A stretch of DNA of 64,000 nucleotides from Geodermatophilus ruber (GTDB lineage: Bacteria > Actinomycetota > Actinomycetes > Mycobacteriales > Geodermatophilaceae): NCBI RefSeq assembly GCF_900114385.1, contig NZ_FOSW01000003.1, positions 62,001-126,000 of the forward strand. The letters run 5' to 3'. Positions 23,582 to 41,068 of the stretch are shown here, piece by piece; the first letter of the stretch is position 1, and every line of letters begins with the position of its first letter. A model generated the notes under the pieces. It saw only the letters and a program-made list of their open reading frames with translations. It did no database searches and had not been told where the DNA came from. The translations under genes and the position numbers were made by a program.

Positions 23582-23767
23582 CCGCCAGCTGTGTCGCACG
23601 CCACCAACAGACATGATCGCCGTCCAAGGAGACCGCTGTGTCAGCGGCTGGCTGCTCCGCCGGTTCCCCCGACCGGTGTCCGGTGCCGTGTAGGCGGCCG
23701 GGCCGCTGGGATCGATGGTGCCGCGTTCTCGCCGTCAGCATGCCCAGTAACAACCGGAGGAGAGCGC

Positions 23768-24763: not shown

Positions 24764-24866
24764 CGCTGCCTGACTGCTGGTCGACCGGCCGGCAGCCTCG
24801 CCGCTCCCCGGGTATCGATCCGGCACCCGGGGACGGCGCGGTCGGTTGCGGAGGGAGCTGTGGACC

Positions 24867-25049: not shown

Positions 25050-25156
25050 CCTGCGCTGCCGCGGGACGCACGGTCATCCGCCGCGGGGGATCTCCGCGCG
25101 TTCCGCGGGCGGGACCGTGGTGCGGTCGCACCGGGCGCGGGACGAGGAGGTGCCGG

Positions 25157-25396: not shown

Positions 25397-25406
25397 GGTG
25401 GTGGCC

Positions 25407-27948: not shown

Positions 27949-29394
27949 TCAGCCGTTGTGTGCGTCCCTCGGCGCGGTCAGCCGCGCGTCGAGGTCGAGC
28001 AGCGCGGCCCGGAAGCAGCTGAGCGGCGCCTCCGCCACGCCCGCGCCCACCTGGCCGCTGCCGTCGCTGTTGTGCAGAATGCCGGTTGTCACCTTCGGCG
28101 TGATGCCGTGCTCCACCACCCGGCGGACGTCCACGCCGAGCGGGGTGCCGCGGCCACCGAACGTGGGCAGGGTGAAGCGGCTGGACCTGCCGACACAGAC
28201 GCGACCCAGCTCATCGGTGAGTTCCGCGGCCGCCGCCAGGCCGCCGACCAGCTGCCCGACGGCGGGGGAGCCGGCCGCAGCCGCTCCGCCGAGACCGACC
28301 AGCTCGAGCACCGCGCTGTCGCCGATGTCCGGCGCGCTGTCGTCGGGGCCCTTGCCCGGGTGGTAGAGCGCGTGCCCGACCATCGGGGCGGGCGCCAGGA
28401 ACCACTCCTGTCCGCCGGAGAGCTTCGCGCCGAACTCGGTGCCGTTGCGGGCCATCGTGGTCACGATCGAGGAGCCCTCGACCTGCCCGGCCCAGGCGGT
28501 GAGCGTCCGGGCGGCGGCCATCGCCAGGGTGAGGAACAGCAGGTGGTTCGCGGCCAGGTAGCGGGCGACCTCCACGCGCCGGGGGTGCTCGGAGGCCATC
28601 AGGGACGGCAGCAGCTGCTTGATCAGCAGGTTGGTCGCCGCCTGGGTGCGCACGTGCACGTCGTCCCCCATGGCCACCGCCTGCGCCGCGATCGAGAAGA
28701 CGTCCACGGGGCCGCTGTCGCGCAGCACCTCCGCGAGCACCGGCTCCGCGGCTTCGCGCAACAGCACCAGCCGCTCCACGGCCTCAGGGGTGTCGCGGCC
28801 GAACCAGGCGACGTTGCCGGAGCCCTGCCCCAGCGGGGCCCAGGAGGAGAGCCCACCGGCCTCGAGCTCGACCACCCAGACCGGCGTGGTCGGGCCCATG
28901 ACGGTGGCCATCGGGACCACGCCGCCGGACTCGTTCGCCGGGGCGAGGGTGATCTCGCCACTGGCCAGCATCGCGTCTGCGCGGGCCACGTCCTCGGCCC
29001 AGCCCTCGGCGACGACAGCGGCGCGCATGGACCGGCGCAGCGGGTCGCAGGCTTCGGCCAGTTCCATCGGCGGGCCGGCGTGCAGCAGGGTGCGGCCGGA
29101 AAGCCCCGGCACCACGTCGCCGGCCCGCCGGACGCCGGTGAGCATCGGGACACCTGTGTCGAGCCGGCGGAACACCTCGGCGTTCGCCTCGTCCACCTGC
29201 TCGTTCAGCGGCCCGGACAGCCGGCGCAGCGCGGCCAGCGCCACCGGGTCGCCACCGGCGGGGACCCGCCAGTCGACCTGGACCGAGGGCCGGCCCTGCG
29301 CGGCGACCGCGGCGGCGAACAGCGGCAGGCCGACGTTGACGACCCCGACCTCGGTGGGGAGGGCGATGGGGGCGGTGGTGTCGGTCGAGCTCAT
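27949..29394 (-). CDS. DUF1116 protein, AllG/YlbE-like carbamoyltransferase subunit
   Basis: 481 residues. The DUF1116 core is visible: [20 protein letters not shown] near 165-185, GSGNVAWFG near 205, and [20 protein letters not shown] near 250. In Escherichia coli the DUF1116 protein AllG (YlbE) works with FdrA (AllF) and AllH as oxamate carbamoyltransferase, passing carbamoyl phosphate to carbamate kinase. FdrA and a carbamate kinase are both present 10 kb away, but AllH (DUF2877) is not. It is the last gene of the six-gene overlapping operon (4-bp overlap with the ASL-like gene), so its substrate may be linked to that pathway instead of oxalurate. Confidence 0.8.
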
Positions 29395-30935
29395 CGGGAG
29401 TCCTCCTGGTCCGCGCCGGAGGCGAACGCCTCGGCCGTCTCGAGCAGGCGGCGGTCGGCCGCCTGGAAGCCCTCGCGGCGGTCGAGGGCTAGGTCACGCA
29501 GTTCCCGGGCCTGTTCCCTGCAGGACGCCGCCATCCCCTCGACCACCGGCGGCGCGGCCCCACCGGCGGCGGTCCGGGTCGCCACGATGTGCCGCGGGTC
29601 GAGGATCTCGACGAGGTCGCGGCCGGTCAGCCCGATGGGCCGGCCGGTGTACTCCCGGGCGGCGGCGTCGAGCATCGCGCCATCGAGGTCGATGCCGCGC
29701 AGCCCCGCCGCGTTGGCCCGGCGGACGGCGACCCCGACCACCTGGTAGGCGGTGCGGTAGTCGACGTCGCAGGTCTGCATCACGTACTCGGCGAGGTCGG
29801 TCGCCTGGCAGAAACCCGACTCCAGCGCGGTCCACATCCGGGCGGTGTTGACCTGCAGGGTGCGGGCGACTCCGCCGGTGAGCCGCGTGGTGCGCAGCGC
29901 GAGGTCGAGGGCGCGCGGCACCTCCCCGTAGGCGTAGATCAGGTTGTCGCTGCGGGCCGAGGGGCTCTTGACGACGGCGAGGAAGCCGCTGACCCGGCCG
30001 ATCAGGGTGCCCGAGGCGCCCCGAATGATCGACAGGGCGTAGGGGTTGCGCTTCTGCGGCATGAGCACACTGGAGCGGCTGAACCCGTCGGCCAGCGTGA
30101 CGTAGTCGAACTCGCTCGAGGCCCAGATCTCCAGGTCCTCGGCCAGCTTGCTCTGGGTGCCCACCAGGCTGGCGGCGACGGCCAGCACGTCGACGAGGCC
30201 GTCGGTCTGCCACATGGCGTCGCGGGTGTGCTCGATGACGCTGTCGAAGCCGAGCATCTGCGCCACCGGGCCCCGGTCGTCGAGCAGCCGACTGCCGTTC
30301 ACGCACCCGGCCCCGCCCGGGCTGCTGTTGATCCAGGCCAGCGCGTCGACCAGGCGGCGCACGTCGCGGAGCACCGGGTAGGCGAAGGACAGCAGGTAGT
30401 GGCCGTAGGTCGAGGGCTGGGCGTGCTGCAGGTAGGTCTGATCCGGCATCCAGGTGCGGCTGTGCTCCGCAGCCGTCTCCGCCAGGGTCTCGGCCAGTGC
30501 GGCGCCGGCCTCGATCAGGTCCACCACCTGGGTGCGCAGGTGCAGGCGCAGCGCGATGCGCACCGCCTCCCGCCGGGGGCGCCCGGCGTGCAGCCAGCCG
30601 GCGTCGTCCCCGATCTGGGAGATGAAGTGCCGCTCCCGGCTGTTGTACGGCTCGCCGAAGGCGGGGTCGTAGGGGAACTCCTCGGGTGTGGTGCGGTCGG
30701 CCTCCAGCAGCAGCGCGAGCAACCGGCGGGCCGGTTCCTCGGGCACCACGCCTCGGGCGCGCAGGTCGAGCACGTGCGCCAGGTCGGCCCGGTTCAGGCC
30801 GGCGTGCAGCAGCGGTGCGTCCGCGTTCTCCAGGTGGAACCCGGAGTCCACGAGCTCGGGGGCGGGCCCTTCTTGCGGTGGTCCGAGCCGGTGTCCGGCG
30901 GTCACGGGCGGGCTCCCCTCAGTGTCGCCTGTCAT
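29391..30935 (-). CDS. Argininosuccinate lyase-like aspartase/fumarase-superfamily enzyme
   Basis: 514 residues. The superfamily signature SSVLMPQKRNPYALS lies near residue 297, with the catalytic region HAQPSTYGHYLLSF near 175 and NSSPGGAGCVNGS near 212. Closest in look to argininosuccinate lyase, but no arginine genes are nearby. In bacterial coenzyme M biosynthesis (Xanthobacter xcb operon) two members of this superfamily act, one eliminating phosphate from phosphosulfolactate and one in thiolation; this gene and the adenylosuccinate lyase-like one fit those roles. It overlaps its neighbours by 4 bp on both sides. Confidence 0.82.
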   Translation of the reverse strand: MTGDTEGSPPVTAGHRLGPPQEGPAPELVDSGFHLENADAPLLHAGLNRADLAHVLDLRARGVVPEEPARRLLALLLEADRTTPEEFPYDPAFGEPYNSRERHFISQIGDDAGWLHAGRPRREAVRIALRLHLRTQVVDLIEAGAALAETLAETAAEHSRTWMPDQTYLQHAQPSTYGHYLLSFAYPVLRDVRRLVDALAWINSSPGGAGCVNGSRLLDDRGPVAQMLGFDSVIEHTRDAMWQTDGLVDVLAVAASLVGTQSKLAEDLEIWASSEFDYVTLADGFSRSSVLMPQKRNPYALSIIRGASGTLIGRVSGFLAVVKSPSARSDNLIYAYGEVPRALDLALRTTRLTGGVARTLQVNTARMWTALESGFCQATDLAEYVMQTCDVDYRTAYQVVGVAVRRANAAGLRGIDLDGAMLDAAAREYTGRPIGLTGRDLVEILDPRHIVATRTAAGGAAPPVVEGMAASCREQARELRDLALDRREGFQAADRRLLETAEAFASGADQEDSR

Positions 30936-31888
30936 CCGTCGCCTCCCATGAGTCCGGCGATGGCGTCGAGCAGGCCACCGGTGTGCCAGAACAGCGCCGG
31001 TTGTCCTCCGGCGGCGGCGGGCAGCGCGGCGAGCGCCTTGGCCGTGTACACGGGGTCGAGCACCAGCCCGGCGGCGCGCAGGGCGAGTGCGGCGGCGGCA
31101 TCCCCGGCGGGTGACGCCACGCCGTGCCCGGGGCCCCGGGCGTCGACGAGTTCGACGTCGGACTCGACCGGCCGGGGCTCACCGCGCCGGTCGGCGACCT
31201 GGCAAGCGAGCTCGAGCACCCGGGCGCTGACCTCCGCCGGGGGGCGGCTCACCGAGGCGCCGACGATGCGCAGCGGCCGTCCGAGCGCCACGTTGCCCGC
31301 GACGAGTCCGGCCAGGGTCCCGCCGGCGCCGGCAGCGATGACGACGACCGGTGCCTGCCCGTCGAGCTGGGCGAGGACCTCGTCGACCGCGAGCCGATAA
31401 CCCTCGGCGCCGACCGGGCTGGCGCCCCCCCGGGGGACGACGTAGGGCCGGCAACCGGCGGCGGTGAGCTCGGCGGCGACGACCGGTAGCTGCGCGTCCA
31501 CGGTGGTCCGGTCGAGGTCGTCGGTGAACCGGACCTCGGCGCCCCAGGCGGTGGCAGCGGCCAGGTTCGGGTGTGCCGATCGAGGGACGGGCGGCCCGGC
31601 GAGCACCAGCACGCACCCCAGCCCGGCCCAGGCGGCGGCCGCCGCGGCGGCCTGCACGAAGTTGGAGCCGAGCGTGCCGCCGGTGACCAGGACGTCGGCG
31701 CCACGTGCCCGGGCGTCCTCGACCAGCAGCTCGAGCTGGCGTGCCTTGTTGCCGGCGACAGCGAAACCGGTGAGGTCGTCGCGCTTGACCCAGAGCGGCC
31801 CGGTGAGCCCGAGGGCCGTCGCCAGCCGGGGAGCCGGGGTCAGCGGGGTGGGCAGCAGAGCCATGCCGCTGATGCCCTGCCGCGTCAC
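30932..31888 (-). CDS. PLP-dependent enzyme, D-cysteine desulfhydrase / ACC deaminase fold
   Basis: 318 residues. LWVKRDDLTGFAVAGNKARQ near 30-50 carries the PLP-binding Lys of AGNKARQLE, followed by TGGTLGSNF and a phosphate-binding loop GAGGTLAGL near 208. This is fold type II, the D-cysteine desulfhydrase / aminocyclopropane-carboxylate deaminase family. In bacterial coenzyme M synthesis a PLP enzyme of this kind takes part in the late sulfur step, and position between the two lyases supports that. ATGA-type overlaps on both sides. Catabolic D-cysteine desulfhydrase is the alternative, but operon context speaks against it. Confidence 0.85.
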   Translation of the reverse strand: MTRQGISGMALLPTPLTPAPRLATALGLTGPLWVKRDDLTGFAVAGNKARQLELLVEDARARGADVLVTGGTLGSNFVQAAAAAAAWAGLGCVLVLAGPPVPRSAHPNLAAATAWGAEVRFTDDLDRTTVDAQLPVVAAELTAAGCRPYVVPRGGASPVGAEGYRLAVDEVLAQLDGQAPVVVIAAGAGGTLAGLVAGNVALGRPLRIVGASVSRPPAEVSARVLELACQVADRRGEPRPVESDVELVDARGPGHGVASPAGDAAAALALRAAGLVLDPVYTAKALAALPAAAGGQPALFWHTGGLLDAIAGLMGGDG

Positions 31889-33237
31889 GCCTCGCCCTCC
31901 GCCGCCCGCGCCGCGCGCGCTCGCGCCACGACCAGGTCGACCATCGCGCCGGCCGCGCCGGCATCAGGTGCCAGCGCGGCGACCTCCTGCCCGCTGAGCA
32001 GGCCGGCTTCGACGAGCACGTCGGCCATCGGCCGCCCGGCGCGGCGGCCCTGTGCGAGCGCGACCTGCATGGCCTCCTGCGCGGCGTGCTTGCCGAGGCG
32101 CTCGGTGAGCACGGTGAGCGCCCGCTCGCTGCCGGTGTAGTCGTCCAGGTTCCGCCGCATGCCGGCGACGTCGACCTCCAGGCCGGTCAGCAGCTCCACG
32201 GCGAACGAGGCGGACGTCGCGGTGAGCAGGCACACCTCGGGCAGCGCGACCCACTCGGCCTTCCAGCTGCGCCCGTCGCGTTCGTGCACGCCGGTCATGC
32301 CCTCCAGCAGCACGGCCGTCGAGGCGCGGACCAGCCGGGCGAGGGTGTCCAGGTGCTCACTGCGTTCGGGGTTGCGCTTGTGCGGCATCGTGATGCTGCC
32401 GACCACCCCGGCGGGGACCGGCTCTGTCAGCTCACCGAGCTCGGGTCGCTGGAGCTCGTAGACCTCGTTGCCGATGCGGGCCAGGGTGCCGGTGACCATG
32501 GCGAGGACGCTCCCCACCTCGGCGATGCGGTCCCGGGCGGTGAGCCACGAGATGCCGGGGTCCGCGAGGCCCAGCTCGGCGCAGAACCGGGCCCGCACGT
32601 GCAGCCCGCGGGGCCCCTGGGCGGCGAGGGTGCCGACGCCGCCGCCGAGCTGGCCGACCAGCCACCGCGGCGTGCCCTCGCGCAGCCGGTCGAGGTGCCG
32701 GCGGATCTCGTCGGCCCAGGAGGCGGCCTTCCAGCCGAAGGTCACCGGCGCGCCCGGCTGCCCGTGCGTCCGCCCGGCGAGCAGCGTGTCGCGGTGCTGT
32801 TCGGCGAGATCGAGTGCCAGCTCCTCGGCGCGCAGCAGGTCGCGCCGCACCTCGCCGAGGACGGTGCGCAGGGCCAGCGACGTCCACGTGTCGGTGAGGT
32901 CCTGCACGGTGGCCCCGACGTAGACGTGGGGATGCACGTCGGCGGGCAGCACCTCGCGCAGCGCCCGGATCAGCCCGAGGGTGCTGTGCCCGGTGGCCCG
33001 GGTCTGGGCGGCGACCAGATCCAGGTCCAGCAGCTCCACCCGGGCGCGGGCGGTGATCTGCTCGGCGGCGGATGCGGGCACCAGCCCCTCGGCCGCCTGC
33101 GCCCGCGCCAGCGCGGCCAGCACATCCAGCCAGGCCTGCAGCCGGCCGCGCTCCTCGAACACCGCGCGGACCGGGGGCGTGCCCCAGAGGTGCCCGTACA
33201 TCGTCGAGTCGGAGATGCGGGCGCCGGAGATCGTCAT
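31885..33237 (-). CDS. Adenylosuccinate lyase-like aspartase/fumarase-superfamily enzyme
   Basis: 450 residues from ATG 33237. Signature GSITMPHKRNPERSE near 283, HGQPGAPVTFGWK near 155 and TVQDLTDT near 100. Length matches adenylosuccinate lyase and the related 3-carboxymuconate cycloisomerase, but purine or protocatechuate genes are absent. Its place in an operon that starts with a phosphosulfolactate synthase homologue suggests phosphate elimination from phosphosulfolactate to sulfoacrylate, the XcbC1-type step, or the later thiol addition; which of the two lyases does which cannot be told from the sequence. Confidence 0.82.
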   Translation of the reverse strand: MTISGARISDSTMYGHLWGTPPVRAVFEERGRLQAWLDVLAALARAQAAEGLVPASAAEQITARARVELLDLDLVAAQTRATGHSTLGLIRALREVLPADVHPHVYVGATVQDLTDTWTSLALRTVLGEVRRDLLRAEELALDLAEQHRDTLLAGRTHGQPGAPVTFGWKAASWADEIRRHLDRLREGTPRWLVGQLGGGVGTLAAQGPRGLHVRARFCAELGLADPGISWLTARDRIAEVGSVLAMVTGTLARIGNEVYELQRPELGELTEPVPAGVVGSITMPHKRNPERSEHLDTLARLVRASTAVLLEGMTGVHERDGRSWKAEWVALPEVCLLTATSASFAVELLTGLEVDVAGMRRNLDDYTGSERALTVLTERLGKHAAQEAMQVALAQGRRAGRPMADVLVEAGLLSGQEVAALAPDAGAAGAMVDLVVARARAARAAEGEA

Positions 33238-34109
33238 GCTTGCTCGGCCAGCTCCGCGGCCGCCTCGAGGGCCTCGCGCAGGTGCCCGAAGGAGGCCCCC
33301 CACGGAGTGATGACCACCCGGCCGTCGACCTCGACGTGGTTCTCCAGCAGGCAGCACTTGGTCAGCAGCACCTCGCCGGGGGGCAGCTCCACCCCGGCGG
33401 CGAGGGTGCGTGGGCAGGTGTCGACCTGGCGGACCGGTCCCTCGTAGAAGAAGTCGTGGATGGCGCGGGACCGGGCGCAACCCAGCAGGGTCCAATCGGC
33501 CTTCGGAGGCACCTCGTCGAGGTAGGACACCTCGGCGCCGGGCACGTCCATGCCACCGCCCCGGCACGGCAGCAGGTAGTGGCCCGTCGGTTCGCCGGGC
33601 AACAGGTCGGGGAGCTCCACGACGTGGGGGACCGGCAGCACGCCGGTCAGGTCGTCGGCGGTCTCCAGTACCCGCTCCACCTGGTCGAGCAGCTTGGCCG
33701 GCCAGGGCGGGGCGACGTCGAGAACGTGCAGGCGCACCGGGTCCGGGTCCAGCACGAAGCTCACGTGCCCGTACGAACCCTCGACGACCACGCACCGGGC
33801 GTCCGGCGCGGCCTGTGCGGCCCTGACCAGGTTGCTGGGGACGCCGGTGTCCAGCTCGGGGCGGTGCAGGTAGACGGTCTCGGCCGGGCTCGCCAGCAGC
33901 ACGACGTCCTCGACGGCCGAGAACAACCCGCTGGTCGCTCCCCGGATCACCTCGACCAGCGCGGTCTCCGCCCCGCGGCGCACGACGACGTACCGGCTGC
34001 GGCGGTAGACCGGCCGGGAGGTCAGCAGGGCTCGCAGGGGCTCGAGTTCCAGCGGCACATCGACGTCGGTCACCGAGACCTCGCGGTAGCGGTCGGGGAA
34101 GGTGCTCAC
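33234..34109 (-). CDS. Unrecognised Cys-rich protein in coenzyme M-like operon
   Basis: 291 residues, GTG start overlapping the previous stop by 4 bp. No family is recognised. Residues 1-180 look alpha/beta (YVVVRRGAETALVEVIRG, VHLHRPEL-like strands). The C-terminal third is Cys-rich: CRGGGMD, LLGCARSRAIHDFFYEG, VDTCPRT and LLTKCCLLENHVEVDG, all in motif-like settings that could bind metal or form a thiol/flavin active site. The operon holds candidates for sulfite addition, phosphate elimination, thiolation and C-S cleavage; the one missing step of the known five-step route is decarboxylation of sulfoacrylate, for which this is the only unassigned protein (inference). Confidence 0.7.
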   Translation of the reverse strand: MSTFPDRYREVSVTDVDVPLELEPLRALLTSRPVYRRSRYVVVRRGAETALVEVIRGATSGLFSAVEDVVLLASPAETVYLHRPELDTGVPSNLVRAAQAAPDARCVVVEGSYGHVSFVLDPDPVRLHVLDVAPPWPAKLLDQVERVLETADDLTGVLPVPHVVELPDLLPGEPTGHYLLPCRGGGMDVPGAEVSYLDEVPPKADWTLLGCARSRAIHDFFYEGPVRQVDTCPRTLAAGVELPPGEVLLTKCCLLENHVEVDGRVVITPWGASFGHLREALEAAAELAEQA

Positions 34110-34888
34110 CGGACGTGCACCCGGCCAGGGGTGGCGTCGAAGGTGTCCGCGCGCAGCCCCAGCCGCAGCGCCTCCAGCCCGAGCGCGTCCGACGGGGCGA
34201 CGTTGGCCAGGTTGACGTCCGGGCCGAAGCGACGGATCAGCCAGGCCTGCTGCTCCTTGCGCGGCGCCTCGAACACCGTGGTGCCGATCCCGACGGACTC
34301 GACGACCGCGTCGACGACATCGGAGCGCACCTCGCCGGTGGGGTCGAACAACCCGACCGTGCCGCTCTCCCGGCCCTCGGTCACCACCCAGGTCGCCCCG
34401 GCGGCGAGGTCGGCGGCGGCGTCGGCCGCCCAGACCGCCGGGGAGACCTCTGCCGTGGGGTCCTTCGCGCCGATCTCGGCGAGCACGATGAAACGGTCCG
34501 CGGCCGCCTCGATCAGCGCGCGTTTGTCGTCGGCGCTCATCGGGGCGACGCCGCAGGACACCTCGACGCAGGGGAACCCGACCTCGGCGGCCCACTGCAG
34601 GTAGGGCTCCACCGCGCCCTGCTGCCAGGCGACCTCGAGCAGCGTCCCGCCGGCGCAGGCGAGCACGCCGTGCCCGTCCAGCACCCTCAGCTTCTCGGCA
34701 AGCCCGGGGTCGAGGTACGCGGTGCCCCAGCCCAGCTTCCAGACATCGACATAGGCTCCGCACACGCGCAGCAGCGGGGCGATCTCGGCGACGGGCAGGC
34801 CCTTGTCGAGCACATGCGTGATGCCCCGCCGGCGTGGCTTCGCCGTGCGCTGTGGCAGGTTGAGGAAGGTCGGCATGGCGTTCACCAT
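34106..34888 (-). CDS. Phosphosulfolactate synthase homologue (ComA / XcbB1 type)
   Basis: 260 residues from ATG 34888, GGAAGGTGG 9 bp upstream. Clear ComA-family blocks: RGITHVLDKGLPV near 22-34, DVWKLGWGTAYL near 48-60, FPCVEVSCGV near 103 and EIGAKDP near 136, in a TIM-barrel length typical for the family. The reaction is addition of sulfite to phosphoenolpyruvate giving phosphosulfolactate, the first committed step to coenzyme M. First gene of the six-gene operon; only 44 bp separate it from the divergent AIRS-like gene, so both promoters must lie in or beyond those bases. Confidence 0.88.
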   Translation of the reverse strand: MVNAMPTFLNLPQRTAKPRRRGITHVLDKGLPVAEIAPLLRVCGAYVDVWKLGWGTAYLDPGLAEKLRVLDGHGVLACAGGTLLEVAWQQGAVEPYLQWAAEVGFPCVEVSCGVAPMSADDKRALIEAAADRFIVLAEIGAKDPTAEVSPAVWAADAAADLAAGATWVVTEGRESGTVGLFDPTGEVRSDVVDAVVESVGIGTTVFEAPRKEQQAWLIRRFGPDVNLANVAPSDALGLEALRLGLRADTFDATPGRVHVR

Positions 34889-34932: not shown

Positions 34933-35880
34933 GTGTCCGACCTCGCGAGCCTCGCCGACCACCTGCGGGGGCTGCCGGGCGTCCTGGCCAAGGCCGACAT
35001 CGGCCTGGTCGCCGACGTGCTGGGCGGTGGCGACTGGTATGCCGGTCCGGGCGACGACGGTGCGGTGCTGCCCGAGGGATCGGGGCACGTCGTGGTGGGG
35101 GGCGAGGCGATCCTGCCGGCGTTCGTGGCCGCCGACCCCTACGGCGCCGGGATCGCGGCCGTCCTGGCCAACATCAACGACCTCGCCGCCATGGGCGCGC
35201 GACCCGTCGCCCTGCTCGACACGGTGGTCGGACCCGAGCAGATCACCCGGGAGGCCCTGCGGGGCATGCGCTGGGCGGCCGGGATGTACGACGTCCCCAT
35301 CGTGGGGGGGCACCTCACCCGCACGGACGGGACGCCGGCGCTGTCCGCCTTCGGCATCGGCCGGGCCGACCGCGTGCTGTCGGCCAACCACGCTGCGGCC
35401 GGTCAGGTGCTCGTGCTCGGATGCTGCCTGGAAGGCGCGATGCGCCCGGACTTCCTGTTCTTCCCGTCCTTCCGCGAGCGGGGTGCGCGCATGGCAGGGG
35501 ACGTGCGCCTGCTGGCCGACCTGGCGGCGACCGGCGCCGCGGTGGCGGCGAAGGACGTCAGCATGGCGGGCCTGGTGGGGTCGCTGGCGATGCTGCTGGA
35601 GCCGCAGCGGCTCGGCGTGACCGTCGACCTCGACGTCCTGCCCGTCCCGGACGGGGTCCCGCTCGCCGACTGGCTGAGCTGCTTCCCTGCGTTCGCCTTC
35701 CTGCTGACCTGCCCGGCGGACCGTGTGGAGAGCTGCCTCGAAGGGTTCCGCGACCGCGGTCTGACCGCGCAGCCGATCGGCGAGCTCGACGACAGCGGCG
35801 AGGTGCGGCTGGCACGGTCGGGCGAGCAGGTGACCGTCTTCGACCTGACGGCTGAGGGTGTGACGAACCTGCGGCGATGA
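34933..35880 (+). CDS. AIR synthase-like protein, sll0787 / NitF family
   Basis: 315 residues, GTG 34933 with CAGGAG upstream. GPGDDGAVL near 38, then AAVLANINDLAAMGARPVAL near 75 are the PurM/AIRS signatures (ATP-binding and dimer interface), and VVGGHLTRTDG near 120 fits the sll0787 subfamily that occurs only in the Nit1C nitrogen-starvation cluster. Proteins of this superfamily phosphorylate or activate small substrates with ATP. The reaction in Nit1C is not known to me. Divergent from the coenzyme M-like operon with a 44-bp gap. Confidence 0.87.
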   Translation: MSDLASLADHLRGLPGVLAKADIGLVADVLGGGDWYAGPGDDGAVLPEGSGHVVVGGEAILPAFVAADPYGAGIAAVLANINDLAAMGARPVALLDTVVGPEQITREALRGMRWAAGMYDVPIVGGHLTRTDGTPALSAFGIGRADRVLSANHAAAGQVLVLGCCLEGAMRPDFLFFPSFRERGARMAGDVRLLADLAATGAAVAAKDVSMAGLVGSLAMLLEPQRLGVTVDLDVLPVPDGVPLADWLSCFPAFAFLLTCPADRVESCLEGFRDRGLTAQPIGELDDSGEVRLARSGEQVTVFDLTAEGVTNLRR

Positions 35881-35906: not shown

Positions 35907-36395
35907 TCACCGCCGCGCCAGCGGGATCGTCATCCGCTGGTGCAGCACGCCGAGGTGGTCCTCGGGCCCACCGACGGGCGACCACCCCAGATGCACGAAG
36001 AACCGCACGTTCGGGGCCTGGACGAGGGCGTTCATCCGGCTGCCGCCACGGTCGCCGGCGAGGGCAACTGCGAGCCGCACCAAGGGCCCGCCGATGTGCG
36101 AGCGGCGGTGTTCGGGCAGAACCGCGAGCCGATCGCCCTTCCACAGCGTGCCGCTCAGCGGGTACAGCCGCACCGTGCCCGCCGGCTCCCCGTGGACGAA
36201 GCCGAGGACGTGCACGGTCGCCGGGTGCTCATCGTGCTCGTCGTGATCGTCGGCGGCGAAGAGGCCCTGCTCGGCGACGAACACCGCTCGGCGGATCTCG
36301 TGGTGTGCGGCAAGTTCCAGCGGCCCCCGGACGGGCCGGCAGGCGAGCGACTCCTCAGTGGGAGGTGAAGAGCGGGAGAGACGGACGTCCGTCAC
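35907..36395 (-). CDS. GNAT acetyltransferase, MSMEG_0567 / Sll0786 (NitE) family
   Basis: 162 residues from GTG 36395; ATG 36404 is the alternative, and both lie inside the end of the radical SAM gene. CRPVRGPLELAAHHEIRRAVF, then VAEQGLFA and RLAVLPEHRRSHIGGPLVRL (acetyl-CoA binding motif A) are typical for this nitrogen-starvation N-acetyltransferase family. The 41-bp overlap with the upstream gene indicates coupling. Acetyl acceptor unknown. Confidence 0.85.
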   Translation of the reverse strand: MTDVRLSRSSPPTEESLACRPVRGPLELAAHHEIRRAVFVAEQGLFAADDHDEHDEHPATVHVLGFVHGEPAGTVRLYPLSGTLWKGDRLAVLPEHRRSHIGGPLVRLAVALAGDRGGSRMNALVQAPNVRFFVHLGWSPVGGPEDHLGVLHQRMTIPLARR

Positions 36396-37536
36396 TGATC
36401 CCACCGTCCATCCGCTCGAAGGCCCCGATGCCCGAACAGGCCTGGCACCGCGCGCACCCGGCAGCGACCCCTGCGGAGGACATGCCCTTCTTCGCCAGGT
36501 AGGGAACGACCTTGCGGTACACGGCCTCGACGGCCTCCCGCGGCGGTGGGAGCAGGTCCTCCATGAGGCTGCCCGGTACCGGACGCAGGGGGACGATGAA
36601 GGGGTAGACGCCCAGGTCGATGGCGCGCTTGCAGCCGTCGATGGTCGTCTGCTCGTCCTCGCCCATCCCGAGGATCACGTAGGTGGACACCTGACCGGAT
36701 CCGAACGCCTTGACGGCCCGCTCCCAGGCGGAGAAGTAGGCCTCGATCCCCCAGCGGGCCTTGCCCGGTGCCACCCGGGCGAGCACGGCGGGGTCGAACG
36801 TCTCCACGTGGATGCCGACCGAGTCGATGCCCATGTCGGCGACCCGGTCGATGACGTCGAGATCGGCCGGTGGCTCGAACTGCACCTGGACGGGGAGCCC
36901 GGCGGCCTGCTTGACCGCCTCGCCGCACCGGGCGACATACATGGCGCCGCGGTCGGGGGTGGCGGTGCTGCCGGTGGTCAGCGTGGCGTCGACCGCGCCG
37001 TCGAGGTCACGGGCGGCGACCGCCACCTCGGCGAGCATGGCCGGCGTCTTCTTGGCGATGGTGCGCCCCGCTGCCAGGGTGACGCCGATCCCGCAGAACG
37101 CGCACTGGTCGTCGTTGCCCCAGTAGGCGCAGGTCTGCAGCACGGTGCTCGCCATGGAGTCCAGGTGCAGCAGGGCGATCTGGTGGTAGGGGATACCGTC
37201 TGCGGTGGTGAGGTCGTAGTACTTCGGCCGTGGGGCGAGCGCTGCGCCGGCGAGGCGTACGCCGTCGCGGTAGACACCCCAGCTGCCGTCGTCCTCACCG
37301 CGCAGGGCGTAGGGGGAGTCCGCCACGTAGGAGGCGTTGGTCGGGACGGTCGTCTGCACGCCCTCGATGTAGAGCATCCCGGCGTCCGCCGGGCCCGCGC
37401 CGCCGGCTCGGGCGTCCAGCGGGACCTCGACGCGCAGACCCGAGCTCTGCACCGCGGTCAGCAGCTGAGCCAACTCCTCGGCCGACAGCGCGGGAGGAGG
37501 CGCTGTCGCGGTCGGGGTGTCTGCGGTGACGGTCAT
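36355..37536 (-). CDS. Radical SAM protein, MSMEG_0568 / Sll0785 (NitD) family
   Basis: 393 residues. The iron-sulfur motif is CAYWGNDDQCAFCG near 136-149 (C-x8-C-x2-C), the long form of this family instead of C-x3-C-x2-C. HLDSMASTVLQTC, then GIHVETFDPAVLARVAPGKA and STYVILGMGEDE match the MSMEG_0568 family closely. A C-terminal CARCQACSG may hold a second cluster. Family membership is restricted to Nit1C-type clusters; a biotin-synthase-like or AmmeMemo-like radical reaction is presumed. Gene order with the GNAT protein is as in cyanobacteria and mycobacteria. Confidence 0.92.
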   Translation of the reverse strand: MTVTADTPTATAPPPALSAEELAQLLTAVQSSGLRVEVPLDARAGGAGPADAGMLYIEGVQTTVPTNASYVADSPYALRGEDDGSWGVYRDGVRLAGAALAPRPKYYDLTTADGIPYHQIALLHLDSMASTVLQTCAYWGNDDQCAFCGIGVTLAAGRTIAKKTPAMLAEVAVAARDLDGAVDATLTTGSTATPDRGAMYVARCGEAVKQAAGLPVQVQFEPPADLDVIDRVADMGIDSVGIHVETFDPAVLARVAPGKARWGIEAYFSAWERAVKAFGSGQVSTYVILGMGEDEQTTIDGCKRAIDLGVYPFIVPLRPVPGSLMEDLLPPPREAVEAVYRKVVPYLAKKGMSSAGVAAGCARCQACSGIGAFERMDGGISDGRPSLPLFTSH

Positions 37537-37638: not shown

Positions 37639-38349
37639 TCATCGAGCCGCCCTCATCGCGCTCGCGCGCGCCTCCCGGGCCGCAGCGTCCGGGCAGGTGG
37701 CGGTGGGCTCCCCGGTCGGGATCTCCTGCACCGCGCCGCTGCCCAGGTCCACCTGCACGACCTGCACGGTGTGGTGCACGTCGCGGAAGTCGTCGTCCGC
37801 GGTGGCCGACACCAGCAGCGCGCGACCGGTCTCCACCTCCACCTCGAGTCGGTGGTAGGGCAGGAACGGGTCACCCTCGGGGTGACCCGCCTCCTCGGTC
37901 ACCACCCACGGTTGCCCCGCGCGGCGTGCCTCGGCGATCAGTCGGAGGCGGCGCAGGAGGGACTGCTCGCCGCGCACCTCGCGGTACCGCATGGCCAGTG
38001 CCGCGCGGGCCACCAGGTCGAGATCGAGCTCGGCGGCGCTCACCCCGCTCTCGTCCACCACCTGCGCGACCAGCTCCGCCCCGCGGTCGGCCGCCGCGAG
38101 AAGGGCGCTGGTGGACGGGCCCTGCTCGCGAAGCCGGTCGACCGTGCGGCGGACCAGGAGGACGATGCGCTGATACAGGTCCGGCCGCTCCGTCACGGCG
38201 GGGTAGAGCTGCGCCTCCGCCTGCTGCCAGGAGGCCGCCGTCAGGGTAGGCACCGAGGCGTCGTCGGGGCCCGCGGTGATCGCTGGATCGCCGTGGACCG
38301 CGGGAGTGCCGGCGTACGGGTCGTCAGCGATCTGGTGCGGATCGGTCAT
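37639..38349 (-). CDS. Unrecognised 236-residue protein in Nit1C-like island
   Basis: No family recognised. Residues 1-40 are polar and disordered, 40-140 mostly helical (LYQRIVLLVRRTVDRLREQG; LDLDLVARAALAMRYREVRG), and 140-220 strand-rich (LPYHRLEVEVETGRALLVSA; HTVQVVQVDLGSGAVQEI). No signal peptide, membrane helix or catalytic motif. It is not AllH/DUF2877, which would carry a GDD-type glycine motif. The gene precedes the radical SAM gene on the same strand (102-bp gap with its own promoter-like bases) and is divergent from the carbamate kinase. Confidence 0.7.
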   Translation of the reverse strand: MTDPHQIADDPYAGTPAVHGDPAITAGPDDASVPTLTAASWQQAEAQLYPAVTERPDLYQRIVLLVRRTVDRLREQGPSTSALLAAADRGAELVAQVVDESGVSAAELDLDLVARAALAMRYREVRGEQSLLRRLRLIAEARRAGQPWVVTEEAGHPEGDPFLPYHRLEVEVETGRALLVSATADDDFRDVHHTVQVVQVDLGSGAVQEIPTGEPTATCPDAAAREARASAMRAAR

Positions 38350-38443: not shown

Positions 38444-39451
38444 ATGACGGCCATGTCCTCGACGGCAGCGCCTTCATCGGCAGCGCCCGTGCCGGCGACT
38501 GCGGTCGTGGCCGTGGGCGGCAACGCCCTCACGGCCGCCGGCCAGGACGGCACCTGGACCGAGATCGAGGCCAACGCGGCGGAGATGGCGGGCAGTCTCG
38601 CTGCCCTCGTCCGCTCCGGGTGGCAGATCGCGGTCGTGCACGGCAACGGCCCCCAGGTGGGCAACCTGGCGATGCAGCAGAACGCCTCGGAACACCTCGT
38701 CCCCGCGCAACCGCTGCACCAGCTCTGCGCTATGACGCAGGGGCAGCTCGGCAGCGTCCTGGTGCGGGCGATCGACCGTGAGTGCGGCCCCGGCACCGCC
38801 GTCTGCGTGGTGACGCACGCGGGCATCGACCCGCAGGACCCGGCTTTCGAGCACCCGACGAAGCCGATCGGTCCGTTCCTCAGCCGCGAGCGGGCCGACC
38901 AGCTGGCCCGCGAGCGTGGTTGGCAGGTCGTGGAGGACTCCGGGCGCGGGTACCGCCGTGTCGTCGCCTCGCCGCGGCCCGCCCGGATCATCGAGATGGA
39001 CGCCGTCCGCACCTTGCTGCAGGCCGGGCACGTGGTGCTCGCGGCCGGTGGCGGCGGGGTCGCGGTCAGTCTGGGAGGGGACGGCGCGATGACCGGGATC
39101 GACGCCGTGATCGACAAGGACCACGCCGCGGCGGCGCTCGCGACCGCTGTGGGGGCCGACGAGCTCTACCTGCTGACCGGGGTGGACTCCGTGCTCCTGG
39201 ACTACGGCACCCCCGAGCAGCGGCCGGCGCACCGGCTCACGCCCGAGGAGGCCGCGCGCCACCTCCAGAACGGTCAGTTCCCCCCCGGCAGCATGGGTCC
39301 GAAGATCAGCGCGGCCCTGCGCTTCCTGGAGGACGGCGGTCACCGGGTCATCATCACCTCTGCCCGCATGCTGGCGGCGGCCGCCGCGGGCCGCCCGGGG
39401 ACGGGCACCTGCATCGAGCCGGCACACGTCGCCGTGGGGAGCGCATCATGA
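38444..39451 (+). CDS. Carbamate kinase
   Basis: 335 residues from ATG 38444; ATG 38402 and 38453 are also in frame and no start has a good ribosome site. VVAVGGNALTAAGQDGTW, then HGNGPQVGNLAMQQ, AAGGGGVAVSLGGD and GSMGPKISAALRF are the canonical carbamate kinase motifs for binding carbamoyl phosphate and ATP. The enzyme converts carbamoyl phosphate plus ADP into ATP, CO2 and ammonia. It overlaps fdrA by 4 bp, as an AllK-FdrA pair, so the carbamoyl phosphate source is probably the FdrA/DUF1116 transferase and not arginine deiminase. Confidence 0.93.
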   Translation: MTAMSSTAAPSSAAPVPATAVVAVGGNALTAAGQDGTWTEIEANAAEMAGSLAALVRSGWQIAVVHGNGPQVGNLAMQQNASEHLVPAQPLHQLCAMTQGQLGSVLVRAIDRECGPGTAVCVVTHAGIDPQDPAFEHPTKPIGPFLSRERADQLARERGWQVVEDSGRGYRRVVASPRPARIIEMDAVRTLLQAGHVVLAAGGGGVAVSLGGDGAMTGIDAVIDKDHAAAALATAVGADELYLLTGVDSVLLDYGTPEQRPAHRLTPEEAARHLQNGQFPPGSMGPKISAALRFLEDGGHRVIITSARMLAAAAAGRPGTGTCIEPAHVAVGSAS

Positions 39452-40995
39452 CCGCGAGCGGGATGCGGGTCCACAAGGACACCTATCTGGACTCCTTGCT
39501 CCTGATGGTCACCACCGTGACCATGGACGAGCGCCCCGGGGTCAGCTGGGCCGGCGCGGTGATGGCGAGCAGGCGTGGCCTGGAGGACCTGGCCGCGGCC
39601 GGGTTCTCCGGCAGCGAGCTGGACGGACTGGGCGCCAACGACCTGGTGCTCGCGGTACGGGCCGAGGACGACGAGACCCTCGAGGCCGCGCTCGACGCCG
39701 GCCGGGACGCCGCCTTCAGCGAGCGGGAGACGAGTGGCGGGGCGACCGAGGAGAAGCCGCCGACCAGCACGGCCGAGGCCGTGCGCCGGACCCCGGGCAT
39801 CGACGTGGCCATCGTCTCCGTGCCGGGGGAGTACGCGGCGCTGGAGGCCCATCACGCCTTGACAGCCGGCCTGCACGTCCTGCTCTTCAGCGACAACGTC
39901 CCGCTGGAGGAGGAGGTCGAGCTCAAGGAGCGGGCGGCGCGACTCGGGTTGCTGGTGATGGGCCCCGGTGCGGGGACCGCGGTCCTCGGCGGTACCGGGC
40001 TCGGCTTTGCCAACGAACTGCGCGCAGAAGGGGGCGGCGCCGTCGGCGTCGTGGCAGCGGCCGGGACGGGGGCTCAGGAAGTCTCTGCCCTGCTGGACCG
40101 CTGGGGGGTCCGGGTCTCCCAGGTCATCGGCGTCGGGGGGCGGGACCTCTCCGAGGCGGTCGGCGGCCGGATGGCCCAGCTCGCGGCCCGGGCCCTGGAC
40201 GCGGACCCGGGCACGAGCGCCGTGCTGCTGGTCTCCAAGCCTCCCTCCGCCGGGGCAGCGGAGGCCGTGCTGGCCGAGTGCCGGGACACCGCCGCGGTCG
40301 CGGTCTTCCTCGGCCTGGACGATCTGGAGCCGCCCGAGGGCGTCCGGTTGGCCCCGACCCTGGAGCAGGGGGCGCTCGCTGCCGCCGCACTGACCGGGGC
40401 ATTCCCGCCCGCCCTGAACGAGGGGCTGTGCGGCCGGGTCGCGGCCGCCGCCGAGCGCCTCGGCGCCGGGCGGACGACCGTGCGCGGGCTCTTCTCGGGC
40501 GGCACGCTCTGCTACGAGGCGCAGTACGTGCTGGAGAGCCTGCTGGGCCCGGTCTACTCGAACGAGCCACTGCGCAAGGACCACGGACTGCCGGCTCCCG
40601 AGCGTGCCCACGTGCTGCTCGACCTGGGCGCGGAGGAGTACACCCAGGGGCGGCCGCACCCGATGATCGACCCGAGCGGCCGGCTGGAGTTGTTGCGCGC
40701 CACCGCGGAGGACCCGACGATCGCGGTCATCCTGCTCGACGTCGTGATCGGCCACGGCAGCCACGAGGACCCGGCGGGTCAGCTCGCCCCGGTCTGCGCC
40801 GAGCTCATGGCCGGCGGTGGCCCGCAGGTCGTCGCCTACCTGCTGGGCACGGAGGCGGATCCGCAGGTCTACTCGCGGCAGCGCGCCGTCCTGGAGGAGG
40901 CCGGCTGCATCGTGCCGGAGACCAACGCCCGCGCGGCGTACGCCGCCGCCGCCCTCGTCCGCCGTGAACCCGGACTCGCGGAGGAGGGGCTGTGA
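39448..40995 (+). CDS. fdrA: FdrA-family protein (AllF-like carbamoyltransferase subunit)
   Basis: 515 residues. It has two Rossmann-type halves as in succinyl-CoA synthetase relatives: DVAIVSVPGEYAALEAHHAL near 115, GPGAGTAVLGG near 172, GVVAAAGTGAQEVSALLDRW near 195, GVGGRDL near 222, then GLFSGGTLCYEAQYVLE near 350. FdrA (AllF) with AllG and AllH forms oxamate carbamoyltransferase in enterobacteria. Here the DUF1116 partner is in the coenzyme M-like operon and AllH is missing. ATGA overlap with the carbamate kinase gene couples transfer to ATP recovery. Confidence 0.88.
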   Translation: MTASGMRVHKDTYLDSLLLMVTTVTMDERPGVSWAGAVMASRRGLEDLAAAGFSGSELDGLGANDLVLAVRAEDDETLEAALDAGRDAAFSERETSGGATEEKPPTSTAEAVRRTPGIDVAIVSVPGEYAALEAHHALTAGLHVLLFSDNVPLEEEVELKERAARLGLLVMGPGAGTAVLGGTGLGFANELRAEGGGAVGVVAAAGTGAQEVSALLDRWGVRVSQVIGVGGRDLSEAVGGRMAQLAARALDADPGTSAVLLVSKPPSAGAAEAVLAECRDTAAVAVFLGLDDLEPPEGVRLAPTLEQGALAAAALTGAFPPALNEGLCGRVAAAAERLGAGRTTVRGLFSGGTLCYEAQYVLESLLGPVYSNEPLRKDHGLPAPERAHVLLDLGAEEYTQGRPHPMIDPSGRLELLRATAEDPTIAVILLDVVIGHGSHEDPAGQLAPVCAELMAGGGPQVVAYLLGTEADPQVYSRQRAVLEEAGCIVPETNARAAYAAAALVRREPGLAEEGL

Positions 40996-41068
40996 CCGAG
41001 CTCGCGAGGTCACCCATGGGCAGGGCACCCCAGGTCGCCGGCCCCACGAGCGCAGGCGAGGAGGGACC

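What the first reader, a model, noticed from the sequence alone, without database searches (positions are those of the whole stretch)
29391..34888. Five-gene set matching the complete bacterial coenzyme M pathway
A ComA-type phosphosulfolactate synthase, two aspartase/fumarase-superfamily lyases, a D-cysteine desulfhydrase-fold PLP enzyme and one unassigned protein lie in one operon with 4-bp overlaps throughout. Published work on Xanthobacter describes a five-step route: sulfite addition, phosphate elimination, decarboxylation, thiolation and final release, using exactly these families. Coenzyme M is known only from few bacteria, mostly alkene oxidisers, and no epoxyalkane-CoM transferase is visible here, so the cofactor would serve another purpose.
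Basis: partly seen in the sequence, partly recalled or inferred. Interest (0 to 1): 0.85.

Follow-up and report, generated by a model that had tools for sequence, protein, structure and literature searches.

The report
Coenzyme M operon inside nitrile-nitrogen island
A bacterium, probably an actinobacterium, carries all five bacterial coenzyme M genes, not beside alkene-oxidation genes as in the known cases but inside an island of nitrile/cyanide nitrogen genes; related bacteria and some distant ones share the arrangement, which points to an unrecognised second use of this rare cofactor.

Summary
Window 34888-29391 (minus strand) is an xcbB-A-D-E-C operon with 4-bp overlaps. All five proteins have a coenzyme M (CoM) family (XcbA, C, D, E or archaeal ComA) as best NCBIfam match, including the 'unassigned' one (XcbA/DUF7714, over cut-off). 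AllG follows XcbC with the same overlap. The lyases are not ASL/ADSL; no epoxyalkane-CoM transferase is recognisable in the genome.

Of 85 xcb loci, 56 carry nitrile-type markers, 22 alkene markers, none both, 7 neither (the sample favours the window's relatives). One Methylocystis genome has one xcb set of each type.

I conclude that CoM probably serves nitrile/cyanide nitrogen metabolism here. My best mechanism, inferred only: CoM carries the cyano carbon, released as carbamoyl phosphate. Neither CoM itself nor its role has been demonstrated in these cells.

The parts
34106..34888 (-). xcbB / comA, phosphosulfolactate synthase (ATG at 34888; an upstream GTG at 34921 is possible)
   Evidence: PF02679 272 bits over cut-off; TIGR03849 247 bits, cut-off 280; solved homologues 1u83, 9cm1, 24fo, 1qwg; 46 of 49 alkene-type conserved columns kept
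33234..34109 (-). xcbA-family protein (DUF7714), the 'unassigned' gene
   Evidence: NF052538 277.6 bits, cut-off 150; PF24830 285 bits; C182, C211, C232, C252, C253, H115, H218 invariant in 66 sequences; no credible solved relative by sequence
31885..33237 (-). xcbD, aspartase/fumarase superfamily
   Evidence: NF052536 576 bits, cut-off 600, ahead of adenylosuccinate lyase 399; 114/121 conserved columns; tree
30932..31888 (-). xcbE, D-cysteine desulfhydrase-fold PLP enzyme
   Evidence: NF052537 252.7 bits (cut-off 450), ahead of CuyA 190 and ACC_deam_rel 189; solved D-cysteine desulfhydrases as relatives
29391..30935 (-). xcbC, phosphosulfolactate phosphate-eliminating lyase family
   Evidence: NF052535 443 bits (cut-off 575), ahead of argH 273; 64/64 conserved columns
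27949..29394 (-). allG / DUF1116, sixth gene of the same operon (4-bp overlap)
   Evidence: PF06545 AllG 212.9 bits; overlap; AllG directly follows XcbC in 23 of 46 nitrile-type loci with contiguous B-A-D-E-C
34933..35880 (+). AIR-synthase-like (Sll0787/NitF-like), divergent from xcbB, 44 bp apart
   Evidence: TIGR04049 252 bits, cut-off 321
35907..36404 (-). MSMEG_0567-type GNAT (NitE-like)
   Evidence: TIGR04045 93.6 bits, cut-off 68.5
36355..37536 (-). MSMEG_0568-type radical SAM protein (NitD-like)
   Evidence: TIGR04043 380.7 bits, cut-off 303.7
37639..38349 (-). conserved protein of unknown family; related proteins in other nitrile-type loci
   Evidence: no Pfam/NCBIfam match at E 0.001; tblastn relatives in 14 fetched loci
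38444..39451 (+). carbamate kinase (start codon uncertain)
   Evidence: TIGR00746 323 bits (cut-off 358), NF009007 291 bits (cut-off 266)
39448..40995 (+). FdrA/AllF, succinyl-CoA-synthetase family
   Evidence: NF004760 379 bits (cut-off 433); solved FdrA 3dmy
41066..42250 (+). MSMEG_0565-type glycosyltransferase
   Evidence: TIGR04047 376.5 bits, cut-off 259.9
42331..42906 (-). helix-turn-helix/cupin regulator, conserved in nitrile-type loci
   Evidence: NCBIfam PuuR-like 70 bits, cut-off 211; tblastn
43084..44421 (+). CoA-disulfide-reductase-like flavoprotein, candidate CoM-disulfide or persulfide reductase
   Evidence: TIGR03385 243 bits, cut-off 579; 61% identical in Methylocystis
44423..44677 (+). 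84-aa protein conserved between the flavoprotein and MSMEG_0572
   Evidence: sequence; relatives in 35 other fetched loci or stretches
44743..45234 (+). MSMEG_0572/Sll0783 family (NitB-like)
   Evidence: TIGR04044 202.8 bits, cut-off 109.9
45353..45997 (+). nitrile hydratase beta subunit
   Evidence: TIGR03888 168 bits, cut-off 152
45997..46599 (+). nitrile hydratase alpha subunit
   Evidence: TIGR01323 301 bits, cut-off 250; thiocyanate hydrolase gamma 198, cut-off 291
46596..46985 (+). nitrile hydratase accessory protein with His-rich tail
   Evidence: TIGR03889 60.7 bits, cut-off 46
46990..47397 (+). OsmC-family protein (start codon uncertain)
   Evidence: OsmC/Ohr family matches below cut-offs; tblastn relatives in 42 of 55 nitrile-type loci

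Best explanation
The five genes are a complete bacterial coenzyme M biosynthesis operon (xcbBADEC). In this organism CoM is made for a nitrile/cyanide nitrogen pathway, not for alkene oxidation. SHOWN by sequence: the five families, the operon layout, no recognisable epoxide arm, and a conserved island joining xcb to Nit1C-type genes, nitrile hydratase (or a nitrilase), FdrA/AllG(/AllH), carbamate kinase, OsmC and a CoA-disulfide-reductase-like flavoprotein. INFERRED mechanism: CoM is the thiol carrier of a cyano carbon. CoM disulfide or persulfide reacts with cyanide to give S-cyano-CoM. Nitrile hydratase, related to thiocyanate hydrolase, hydrates it to S-carbamoyl-CoM. The AllF/AllG carbamoyltransferase phosphorolyses it to carbamoyl phosphate and free CoM; AllF belongs to the succinyl-CoA synthetase family, which converts thioester plus phosphate to acyl phosphate plus thiol. 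Carbamate kinase then yields ATP, ammonia and CO2. The flavoprotein and OsmC would keep CoM reduced. The roles of the radical SAM, GNAT, AIR-synthase-like and glycosyltransferase proteins are unassigned. The confidence given is for 'CoM made here serves nitrile/cyanide nitrogen metabolism'; for the S-cyano/S-carbamoyl chemistry alone I give about 0.2.
For: XcbA-E as best families. 64/64, 114/121, 46/49, 45/53 and 52/73 conserved alkene-type columns kept. No XecA or 2-KPCC orthologue recognisable in the genome. Of 85 xcb loci, 56 have only nitrile-type markers, 22 only alkene markers, 0 both, 7 neither. Same-genome co-occurrence: 9 of 10 XcbA-positive genomes (own genome included) among 396 of the phylum also hold the Nit1C radical SAM over cut-off, which 22 of 396 hold (hypergeometric 8e-12), on one contig in 7 of the 9. 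FdrA in 8 of 8 nitrile-type genomes searched. Methylocystis iwaonis, another phylum, has xcbBADEC beside Nit6803 nitrilase, MSMEG_0568, 0567, Sll0787, 0565, 0572, AllG and FdrA. Methylocystis sp. Sn-Cys has a second xcb set with XecA, KPCC and CoA transferase on another contig, and its two XcbD copies fall in the two sets of the tree. [quoted passage not shown]
Against: No CoM measurement and no genetics. XcbB-E score below the NCBIfam cut-offs. Control: the ethene oxidiser JS614 also misses them for XcbB, XcbE and XcbC, with XcbB and XcbC lower than the window's, but its XcbE (315) is higher than the window's (253) and its XcbD (695) passes; nitrile-type Methylocystis XcbD, E and C also fall below (504, 209, 423). 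XcbA and XcbE are the least conserved between the types (52/73, 45/53). The only two nitrilase-like matches of the genome to the Nit6803 type (35% and a weak 30%) are on other contigs. AllH is not in the cluster, while E. coli OXTCase needs AllF, AllG and AllH (PMC11326118, passages); the only AllH of this genome is on another contig. Nitrile hydratase is not universal: 7 of 21 nitrile-type genomes lack it; five of those seven have an Amidohydro_2 gene at the locus or its extension, one a Nit1C nitrilase (L037), one neither seen (L024). 13 of the 22 radical SAM genomes have no XcbA, so Nit1C-type genes do not need CoM as a rule. AIRS is below its cut-off. OXTCase is known to act on oxalurate, not on S-carbamoyl thiols.
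Confidence: 0.6

Rival explanations
1. CoM is made as a general redox thiol or detoxification reagent (with OsmC and the CoA-disulfide-reductase-like protein) that protects cells handling nitriles, cyanide or peroxides; it is not a carrier in the nitrogen pathway itself.
For: OsmC in 42 and the flavoprotein in 32 of the 55 nitrile-type loci among the 80 (flanks up to 10 kb); CoA-disulfide reductase is the flavoprotein's best family, below cut-off.
Against: AllG overlaps XcbC by 4 bp in the window, and AIRS, AllG and M0572 are nearly as regular as OsmC (38, 31 and 31 of 55).
Confidence: 0.18
2. The five enzymes make a relative of CoM or a sulfonate building block for a natural product assembled by the radical SAM, GNAT, AIRS and glycosyltransferase proteins.
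For: XcbE and XcbC fall well below their cut-offs and the window's XcbE scores lower than that of JS614; glycosyltransferase and GNAT lie in the island; a 2005 study had no experimental function for any Nit1C gene (PMC1199592, passages).
Against: All five enzymes are shared with alkene-type loci, with the order B-A-D-E-C in 7 of 22 of them; 64/64 conserved columns in XcbC; XcbE of JS614 also misses the cut-off.
Confidence: 0.12
3. An alkene/epoxide CoM pathway whose epoxide genes lie elsewhere in the genome.
For: The bacterial CoM loci described in the papers whose passages I saw are of alkene or epoxide metabolism (PMC11507031, PMC8727900).
Against: Best XecA-like gene 27% over its length and best-scoring KPCC-like match 27%, with shorter lower-scoring segments up to 36%; of 20 nitrile-type genomes only Methylocystis Sn-Cys has a true XecA, beside a separate second xcb set.
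Confidence: 0.05
4. CoM adds to an unsaturated or otherwise electrophilic organic nitrile, making a nitrile-CoM conjugate that nitrile hydratase, nitrilase or amidohydrolase then opens.
For: Nitrile hydratase, a Nit6803 nitrilase and an Amidohydro_2 enzyme occur in different members, as if one hydrolytic step were exchangeable.
Against: Does not explain AllF/AllG and carbamate kinase; the nitrile hydratase substrate is unknown; Amidohydro_2 and nitrile hydratase stand together in L018, L031 and L107.
Confidence: 0.15

Closest known systems
Xcb coenzyme M biosynthesis operons of Xanthobacter Py2, Nocardioides JS614 and Mycolicibacterium NBB4
   Same: All five enzyme families; order B-A-D-E-C as in JS614 and NBB4; conserved residues
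   Different: No recognisable epoxide genes; nitrile-type XcbD forms a 55-sequence set apart from the alkene type (SH-aLRT 100); AllG is appended to the operon
Nit1C cluster (nitBCDEFGH) of cyanide-assimilating Pseudomonas and of cyanobacteria
   Same: Radical SAM, GNAT, MSMEG_0572 and MSMEG_0565 families over their cut-offs; AIRS-like
   Different: No NitC nitrilase in the window (nitrile hydratase instead); CoM synthesis, FdrA/AllG, carbamate kinase and OsmC added; NitG and NitH were not searched for
AllFGHK oxamic transcarbamylase plus carbamate kinase of E. coli (PMC11326118)
   Same: AllF (FdrA), AllG and carbamate kinase; AllH relatives in 25 related loci (two of them checked against Pfam AllH)
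   Different: No AllH in the window cluster; link to CoM synthesis; allantoin genes were not searched for
CoM-dependent epoxide clusters of methanotrophs (M. crimeensis, PMC11507031, passages)
   Same: CoM synthesis genes in a methanotroph
   Different: Those carry etnE; the nitrile-type set of Methylocystis Sn-Cys does not have it in the stretch held, and that genome carries both sets

Membership tests
Bacterial CoM biosynthesis (Xcb) | All five families XcbA, B, C, D, E present together | tested here: met
Bacterial CoM biosynthesis (Xcb) | Scores over the curated NCBIfam cut-offs | tested here: inconclusive
   XcbA over; XcbB, C, D, E below. JS614, used as control, is also below for XcbB, XcbE and XcbC and over for XcbD and XcbA
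Bacterial CoM biosynthesis (Xcb) | Lyases distinct from ASL/ADSL and retaining Xcb-conserved residues | tested here: met
   Tree with the genome's other four lyases outside both Xcb lyase sets ('quick' method, LG+G4, long branches flagged by the tool); 64/64 and 114/121 columns against at most 42/64 and 63/121
Bacterial CoM biosynthesis (Xcb) | Sulfite/PEP-binding residues of ComA | not tested
   Only overall alignment to solved synthases and 46/49 conserved columns; residues not mapped individually
Bacterial CoM biosynthesis (Xcb) | Cells make CoM | not testable with these tools
   needs LC-MS
CoM-dependent epoxide pathway | Epoxyalkane:CoM transferase and downstream CoM enzymes in the genome | tested here: not met
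   (searched with the Xanthobacter proteins only)
Nit1C cluster | Radical SAM, GNAT and MSMEG_0572 proteins of the Nit1C families | tested here: met
   over cut-offs
Nit1C cluster | NitC/Nit6803 nitrilase in the cluster | tested here: not met
   A 35% nitrilase-like match on contig C14 and a weak one on C8, none on the window's contig; nitrile hydratase in the cluster. Hence Nit1C-like, not Nit1C
Nit1C cluster | AIR-synthase (NitF) of the curated family | tested here: inconclusive
   TIGR04049 is best but 252 against cut-off 321
Nit1C cluster | NitG and NitH | not tested
   no query for them was run; the protein that I had first labelled as the MSMEG_0569-type oxidoreductase of Methylocystis proved to be FdrA
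AllFGHK oxamic transcarbamylase | AllF, AllG and carbamate kinase | tested here: met
   (AllF below its NCBIfam cut-off, AllG over Pfam cut-off, carbamate kinase over one of its cut-offs and below others)
AllFGHK oxamic transcarbamylase | AllH with AllF and AllG | tested here: not met
   Absent from the cluster; one AllH on contig C23 without AllF/AllG in the 18 kb around it. Works-like claim only
AllFGHK oxamic transcarbamylase | Carbamoyl transfer to phosphate | not testable with these tools
   enzyme assay needed

The most novel reading that the evidence does not exclude
Coenzyme M is a one-carbon/nitrogen carrier in bacteria: it takes up cyanide as S-cyano-CoM, which is hydrated to S-carbamoyl-CoM and phosphorolysed by an AllF/AllG(/AllH) complex to carbamoyl phosphate, so that cyanide nitrogen is gained with ATP. 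To my knowledge this would be the first CoM function outside hydrocarbon metabolism, and it would explain Nit1C-type islands that carry xcb.
Probability: 0.2. Interest if true: 0.92.

Novelty: new variant of a known kind. Interest (0 to 1): 0.8.

Why it matters
[quoted passage not shown] The present data place complete xcb operons in a second, nitrile/nitrogen context in Actinomycetota, Pseudomonadota and a MAG labelled Acidobacteria (L027), with contig-cut or partial ones in a second Acidobacteria MAG (L014) and a MAG labelled Bacillota (L038). This gives a directly testable function for CoM outside hydrocarbon metabolism and a thiol partner for part of the long-enigmatic Nit1C-type clusters. 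It also warns against calling alkene oxidation from comA/xcb genes alone.

Tried and rejected
So the XcbA fold stays unknown, and the PDB sequence search found nothing credible (best E 0.31).

Industrial link considered and dropped: I asked whether the island's nitrile hydratase is a known industrial Pseudonocardia enzyme. The P. thermophila genome (L030) holds two alpha subunits, 73% and 62% identical to the window's, and solved cobalt nitrile hydratases are relatives; nothing ties the island's enzyme to a named one, so no claim is made.

LarB/LarE-like genes (21 and 20 loci) were considered as part of the system. They occur only in Pseudonocardia, Actinomycetospora and one other Pseudonocardiaceae MAG, plus (LarB only) one Mycolicibacterium MAG: kept as an observation. 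The DUF1348 gene beside the window cluster recurs in one other fetched locus (L013) and the SsuA-type gene has one weak relative (L120, 27%), so neither is counted as part of the island.

I first took the two locus types as mutually exclusive per genome. The search of 20 nitrile-type genomes for XecA corrected this: Methylocystis Sn-Cys has both, as separate xcb sets.

Bias: the 80 genome loci are the best 80 of 179 relatives ranked by similarity to the window's XcbA, so the 55:18:7 split among them overstates the nitrile type. The hypergeometric value ignores relatedness (three of the ten genomes share a genus and two further pairs a family). L079_D in the lyase tree is a mis-extracted duplicate of L079_C. 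The novelty statement rests in an open-licence library, of which only the top 12-15 of 43 to 477 papers were listed (one search found none at all). The main CoM pathway papers (PNAS 2022, JBC 2018) are not held, so their content is recalled or taken from other papers' passages.

Full report
OBSERVATION. On the minus strand, 34888-29391, five intact genes follow one another with exact 4-bp overlaps: xcbB/comA, xcbA, xcbD, xcbE, xcbC. AllG (29394-27949) continues the chain with the same overlap. The order is that of Nocardioides JS614 and M. chubuense NBB4 (B-A-D-E-C), while Xanthobacter has A-B-C-D-E. Contiguous B-A-D-E-C is found in 46 of 56 nitrile-type and 7 of 22 alkene-type loci; AllG follows XcbC directly in 23 of those 46.

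IDENTITY OF THE FIVE PROTEINS. Best NCBIfam matches are XcbD 576 bits (cut-off 600), XcbC 443 (575), XcbE 253 (450), XcbA family 278 (150) and archaeal ComA 247 (280). Four are below cut-off. As a control I scored the ethene oxidiser JS614: ComA 217 and XcbC 378 are lower than the window's; XcbE 315 is also below cut-off but higher than the window's; XcbD 695 and XcbA 411 pass. Nitrile-type Methylocystis XcbD, XcbE and XcbC score 504, 209 and 423. The cut-offs therefore do not decide. Columns conserved in at least 95% of alkene-type sequences are kept in 64 of 64 (XcbC), 114 of 121 (XcbD), 46 of 49 (XcbB), 45 of 53 (XcbE) and 52 of 73 (XcbA) cases. The four other lyases of the genome keep 22-42 of the 64 and 41-63 of the 121. 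In a 'quick' LG+G4 tree of 150 lyases the genome's own four (by signature and length an ArgH, a PurB, a FumC and a PcaB type; the labels are mine) lie outside both Xcb lyase sets; the tool flags their branches as long. XcbA has five invariant cysteines and two invariant histidines over 66 sequences and no credible solved relative by sequence. Its reaction could not be checked, since the pathway papers are not held. A Mycolicibacterium paper describes a further conserved gene, xcbF1, in these clusters (PMC8727900, passages), which I take to be the XcbA family.

NO EPOXIDE ARM RECOGNISED. In the whole genome (4.99 Mb, 32 contigs, 99.7% complete) the best match to Xanthobacter 2-hydroxypropyl-CoM lyase (XecA) is one gene, 29% over residues 9-223 plus a 69-residue segment at 41%, 27% over the whole length. 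The best-scoring match to 2-ketopropyl-CoM oxidoreductase is 27% over 376 residues; shorter, lower-scoring segments of other flavoproteins reach 36%.

THE ISLAND. On either side lie a Sll0787-like AIR synthase, MSMEG_0567 GNAT, MSMEG_0568 radical SAM, a conserved unknown, carbamate kinase, FdrA, MSMEG_0565 glycosyltransferase, a cupin regulator, a CoA-disulfide-reductase-like flavoprotein, an 84-aa protein, MSMEG_0572, nitrile hydratase beta, alpha and accessory protein, and OsmC. Radical SAM, GNAT, MSMEG_0572, MSMEG_0565 and all three nitrile hydratase proteins pass their curated cut-offs; AIRS, FdrA, the flavoprotein and OsmC do not pass theirs.

THE SAME ISLAND ELSEWHERE. A scan of 84,980 species genomes with an XcbA alignment gave 195 stretches and 179 relatives, of which the best 80 were kept. 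I scored these 80 and the five plasmid loci L002-L006 with a panel of 39 proteins. Nitrile-type markers only (any of 11, at 60 bits): 56; alkene markers only (XecA, KPCC or CoA transferase at 150-200 bits): 22; both: 0; neither: 7. Among the 80 the split is 55, 18 and 7, and it favours relatives of the window by construction. Within flanks of up to 10 kb of the 55: OsmC 42, AIRS 38, flavoprotein 32, AllG 31, MSMEG_0572 31, cupin regulator 29, GNAT 28, radical SAM 19, nitrile hydratase beta 17 and alpha 16, FdrA 14, carbamate kinase 13, glycosyltransferase 12, Nit6803 nitrilase 1. Flank length explains many absences: FdrA is in 8 of 8 nitrile-type genomes searched, and 20-kb extensions show further island genes just beyond the first flanks in six of them; in the seventh (L015) they are already in the locus, and in P. 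dioxanivorans FdrA and part of the set lie at another place of the chromosome. AllH relatives occur in 25 loci (two checked against Pfam) but not in the window or its nearest relatives L011-L013.

INDEPENDENT CO-OCCURRENCE. In 396 genomes of the phylum XcbA is found in 10, the own genome among them (9 over cut-off). The MSMEG_0568 radical SAM is over cut-off in 22, including 9 of those 10, on the same contig in 7 of the 9; hypergeometric P = 8e-12, without correction for kinship. Thirteen of the 22 radical SAM genomes have no XcbA, so the Nit1C-type genes do not need CoM as a rule. In the window's own family 7 of 96 genomes have XcbA and none of the 20 other same-genus genomes. Of the six relatives' loci, five carry XecA in the short stretch held, so the window's island is unusual in its family. 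The family is probably Geodermatophilaceae, inferred from a contig of identical length, 13875 bases, in G405 and in a named Geodermatophilaceae MAG.

TWO SETS IN ONE GENOME. Methylocystis iwaonis has xcbBADEC beside Nit6803 nitrilase, radical SAM, GNAT, AIRS, MSMEG_0565, MSMEG_0572, AllG, FdrA (annotated 'oxidoreductase') and OsmC. Methylocystis sp. Sn-Cys has a near-identical set (L037; AllG, MSMEG_0572 and the glycosyltransferase are not in the stretch held) and, on another contig, XecA, KPCC, SDR, CoA transferase and xcbA-B-C-D-E in Xanthobacter order. Its two XcbD copies sit in the nitrile-type set (55 rows, SH-aLRT 100) and with Xanthobacter respectively. Of 20 nitrile-type genomes it is the only one with a true XecA (76% over 370 residues); 12 others have best-scoring partial matches of 26-33% (shorter segments up to 44%), and 7 have none.

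HOW IT MAY WORK. Nit1C is required for growth on cyanide in Pseudomonas, where a nitrilase releases ammonium from cyanohydrins (PMC11049912, passages); the passages give no proven reaction for its other genes. AllFGH makes carbamoyl phosphate and carbamate kinase takes ATP from it (PMC11326118, passages). Established family knowledge: succinyl-CoA synthetases, the family of FdrA, turn a thioester plus phosphate into an acyl phosphate plus thiol; nitrile hydratases are related to thiocyanate hydrolase, which hydrates an S-C-N group (the relation is seen). Put together, S-cyano-CoM to S-carbamoyl-CoM to carbamoyl phosphate is a coherent route that uses CoM catalytically, but every step of it is inference. 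Against it: nitrile hydratase is missing in 7 of 21 nitrile-type genomes, though an Amidohydro_2 gene stands at the locus or its extension in five of these seven and a nitrilase in one, and Amidohydro_2 also occurs together with nitrile hydratase in L018, L031 and L107; AllH is missing in the window cluster; the radical SAM, GNAT, AIRS and glycosyltransferase proteins have no place in the scheme.

NOVELTY. No paper in the held library contains both 'coenzyme M' and 'nit1C'. Searches combining coenzyme M or phosphosulfolactate synthase with nitrile hydratase, nitrilase, cyanide or Pseudonocardia listed nothing that joins them (only the top 12-15 papers of each were listed). Two listed papers were opened at the terms: PMC6941271 is a false match, and PMC4412061, a sponge transcriptome, names the enzymes in unrelated places. 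The library is open-licence only. NCBIfam already defines the Xcb families, so the operon is a member of a known kind; the nitrile/nitrogen context is the new part.

VERDICT. Operon and pathway identity: strong. CoM in a nitrile/cyanide nitrogen role: likely (about 0.6). S-cyano/S-carbamoyl carrier chemistry: possible (about 0.2).

Noticed in passing
window 50804-52116 and 49260-50351, 47645-49039: A second nitrile hydratase alpha (Pfam) with a beta-like gene (tblastn), a NicO nickel/cobalt transporter and an amidase lie on the minus strand just beyond the island.
   Followed up: partly
window 23489-27173: An SsuA/NMT1-type substrate-binding protein and a SulP-family sulfate permease lie on the far side of the operon; SsuA-type genes are also reported near CoM genes in vinyl-chloride mycobacteria (PMC8727900, passages), but only one weak relative was seen in the other fetched loci.
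   Followed up: partly
L033 1181-2029, L052 868-1692 and about 20 loci: LarE-like and LarB-like genes (the Lar naming is mine; Pfam gives Asn_synthase and AIRC) lie on the OsmC side of Pseudonocardia and Actinomycetospora nitrile-type clusters, suggesting a link to nickel-pincer cofactor synthesis.
   Followed up: partly
L009 8665-9005: Methylocystis iwaonis carries two short XecA-like fragments near its nitrile-type cluster, apparently remains of an epoxide gene; annotated cytochrome d (CydAB-type) oxidase genes lie between them and the cluster.
   Followed up: no
L120/L121 (P. dioxanivorans CB1190, about 6.63-6.66 Mb): A second partial island with FdrA, carbamate kinase, AllG, MSMEG_0572, flavoprotein and an XcbB homologue (no other Xcb hit in these two stretches), far from the main xcb operon at 1.69-1.71 Mb.
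   Followed up: no
L027 5584-6444 and eight other loci: An Amidohydro_2 enzyme occurs in nine fetched loci or extensions, among them five of the seven genomes without nitrile hydratase, as if it could replace it; three others hold both.
   Followed up: partly
L087, L089, L079, L088: XcbA-bearing loci (actinobacterial, Chloroflexi and Acidimicrobiia MAGs) with neither nitrile nor alkene markers; possibly a third context or cut contigs.
   Followed up: no
Methanosarcina acetivorans (control genome): The XcbA-family model gives a match below its cut-off in a methanogen that makes CoM by another route.
   Followed up: no
G000:C23:92000-110000 (L140): The only AllH-like gene of the genome lies beside what looks like a PucR-type regulator and riboflavin genes (my reading of the ORFs), without AllF or AllG.
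   Followed up: partly
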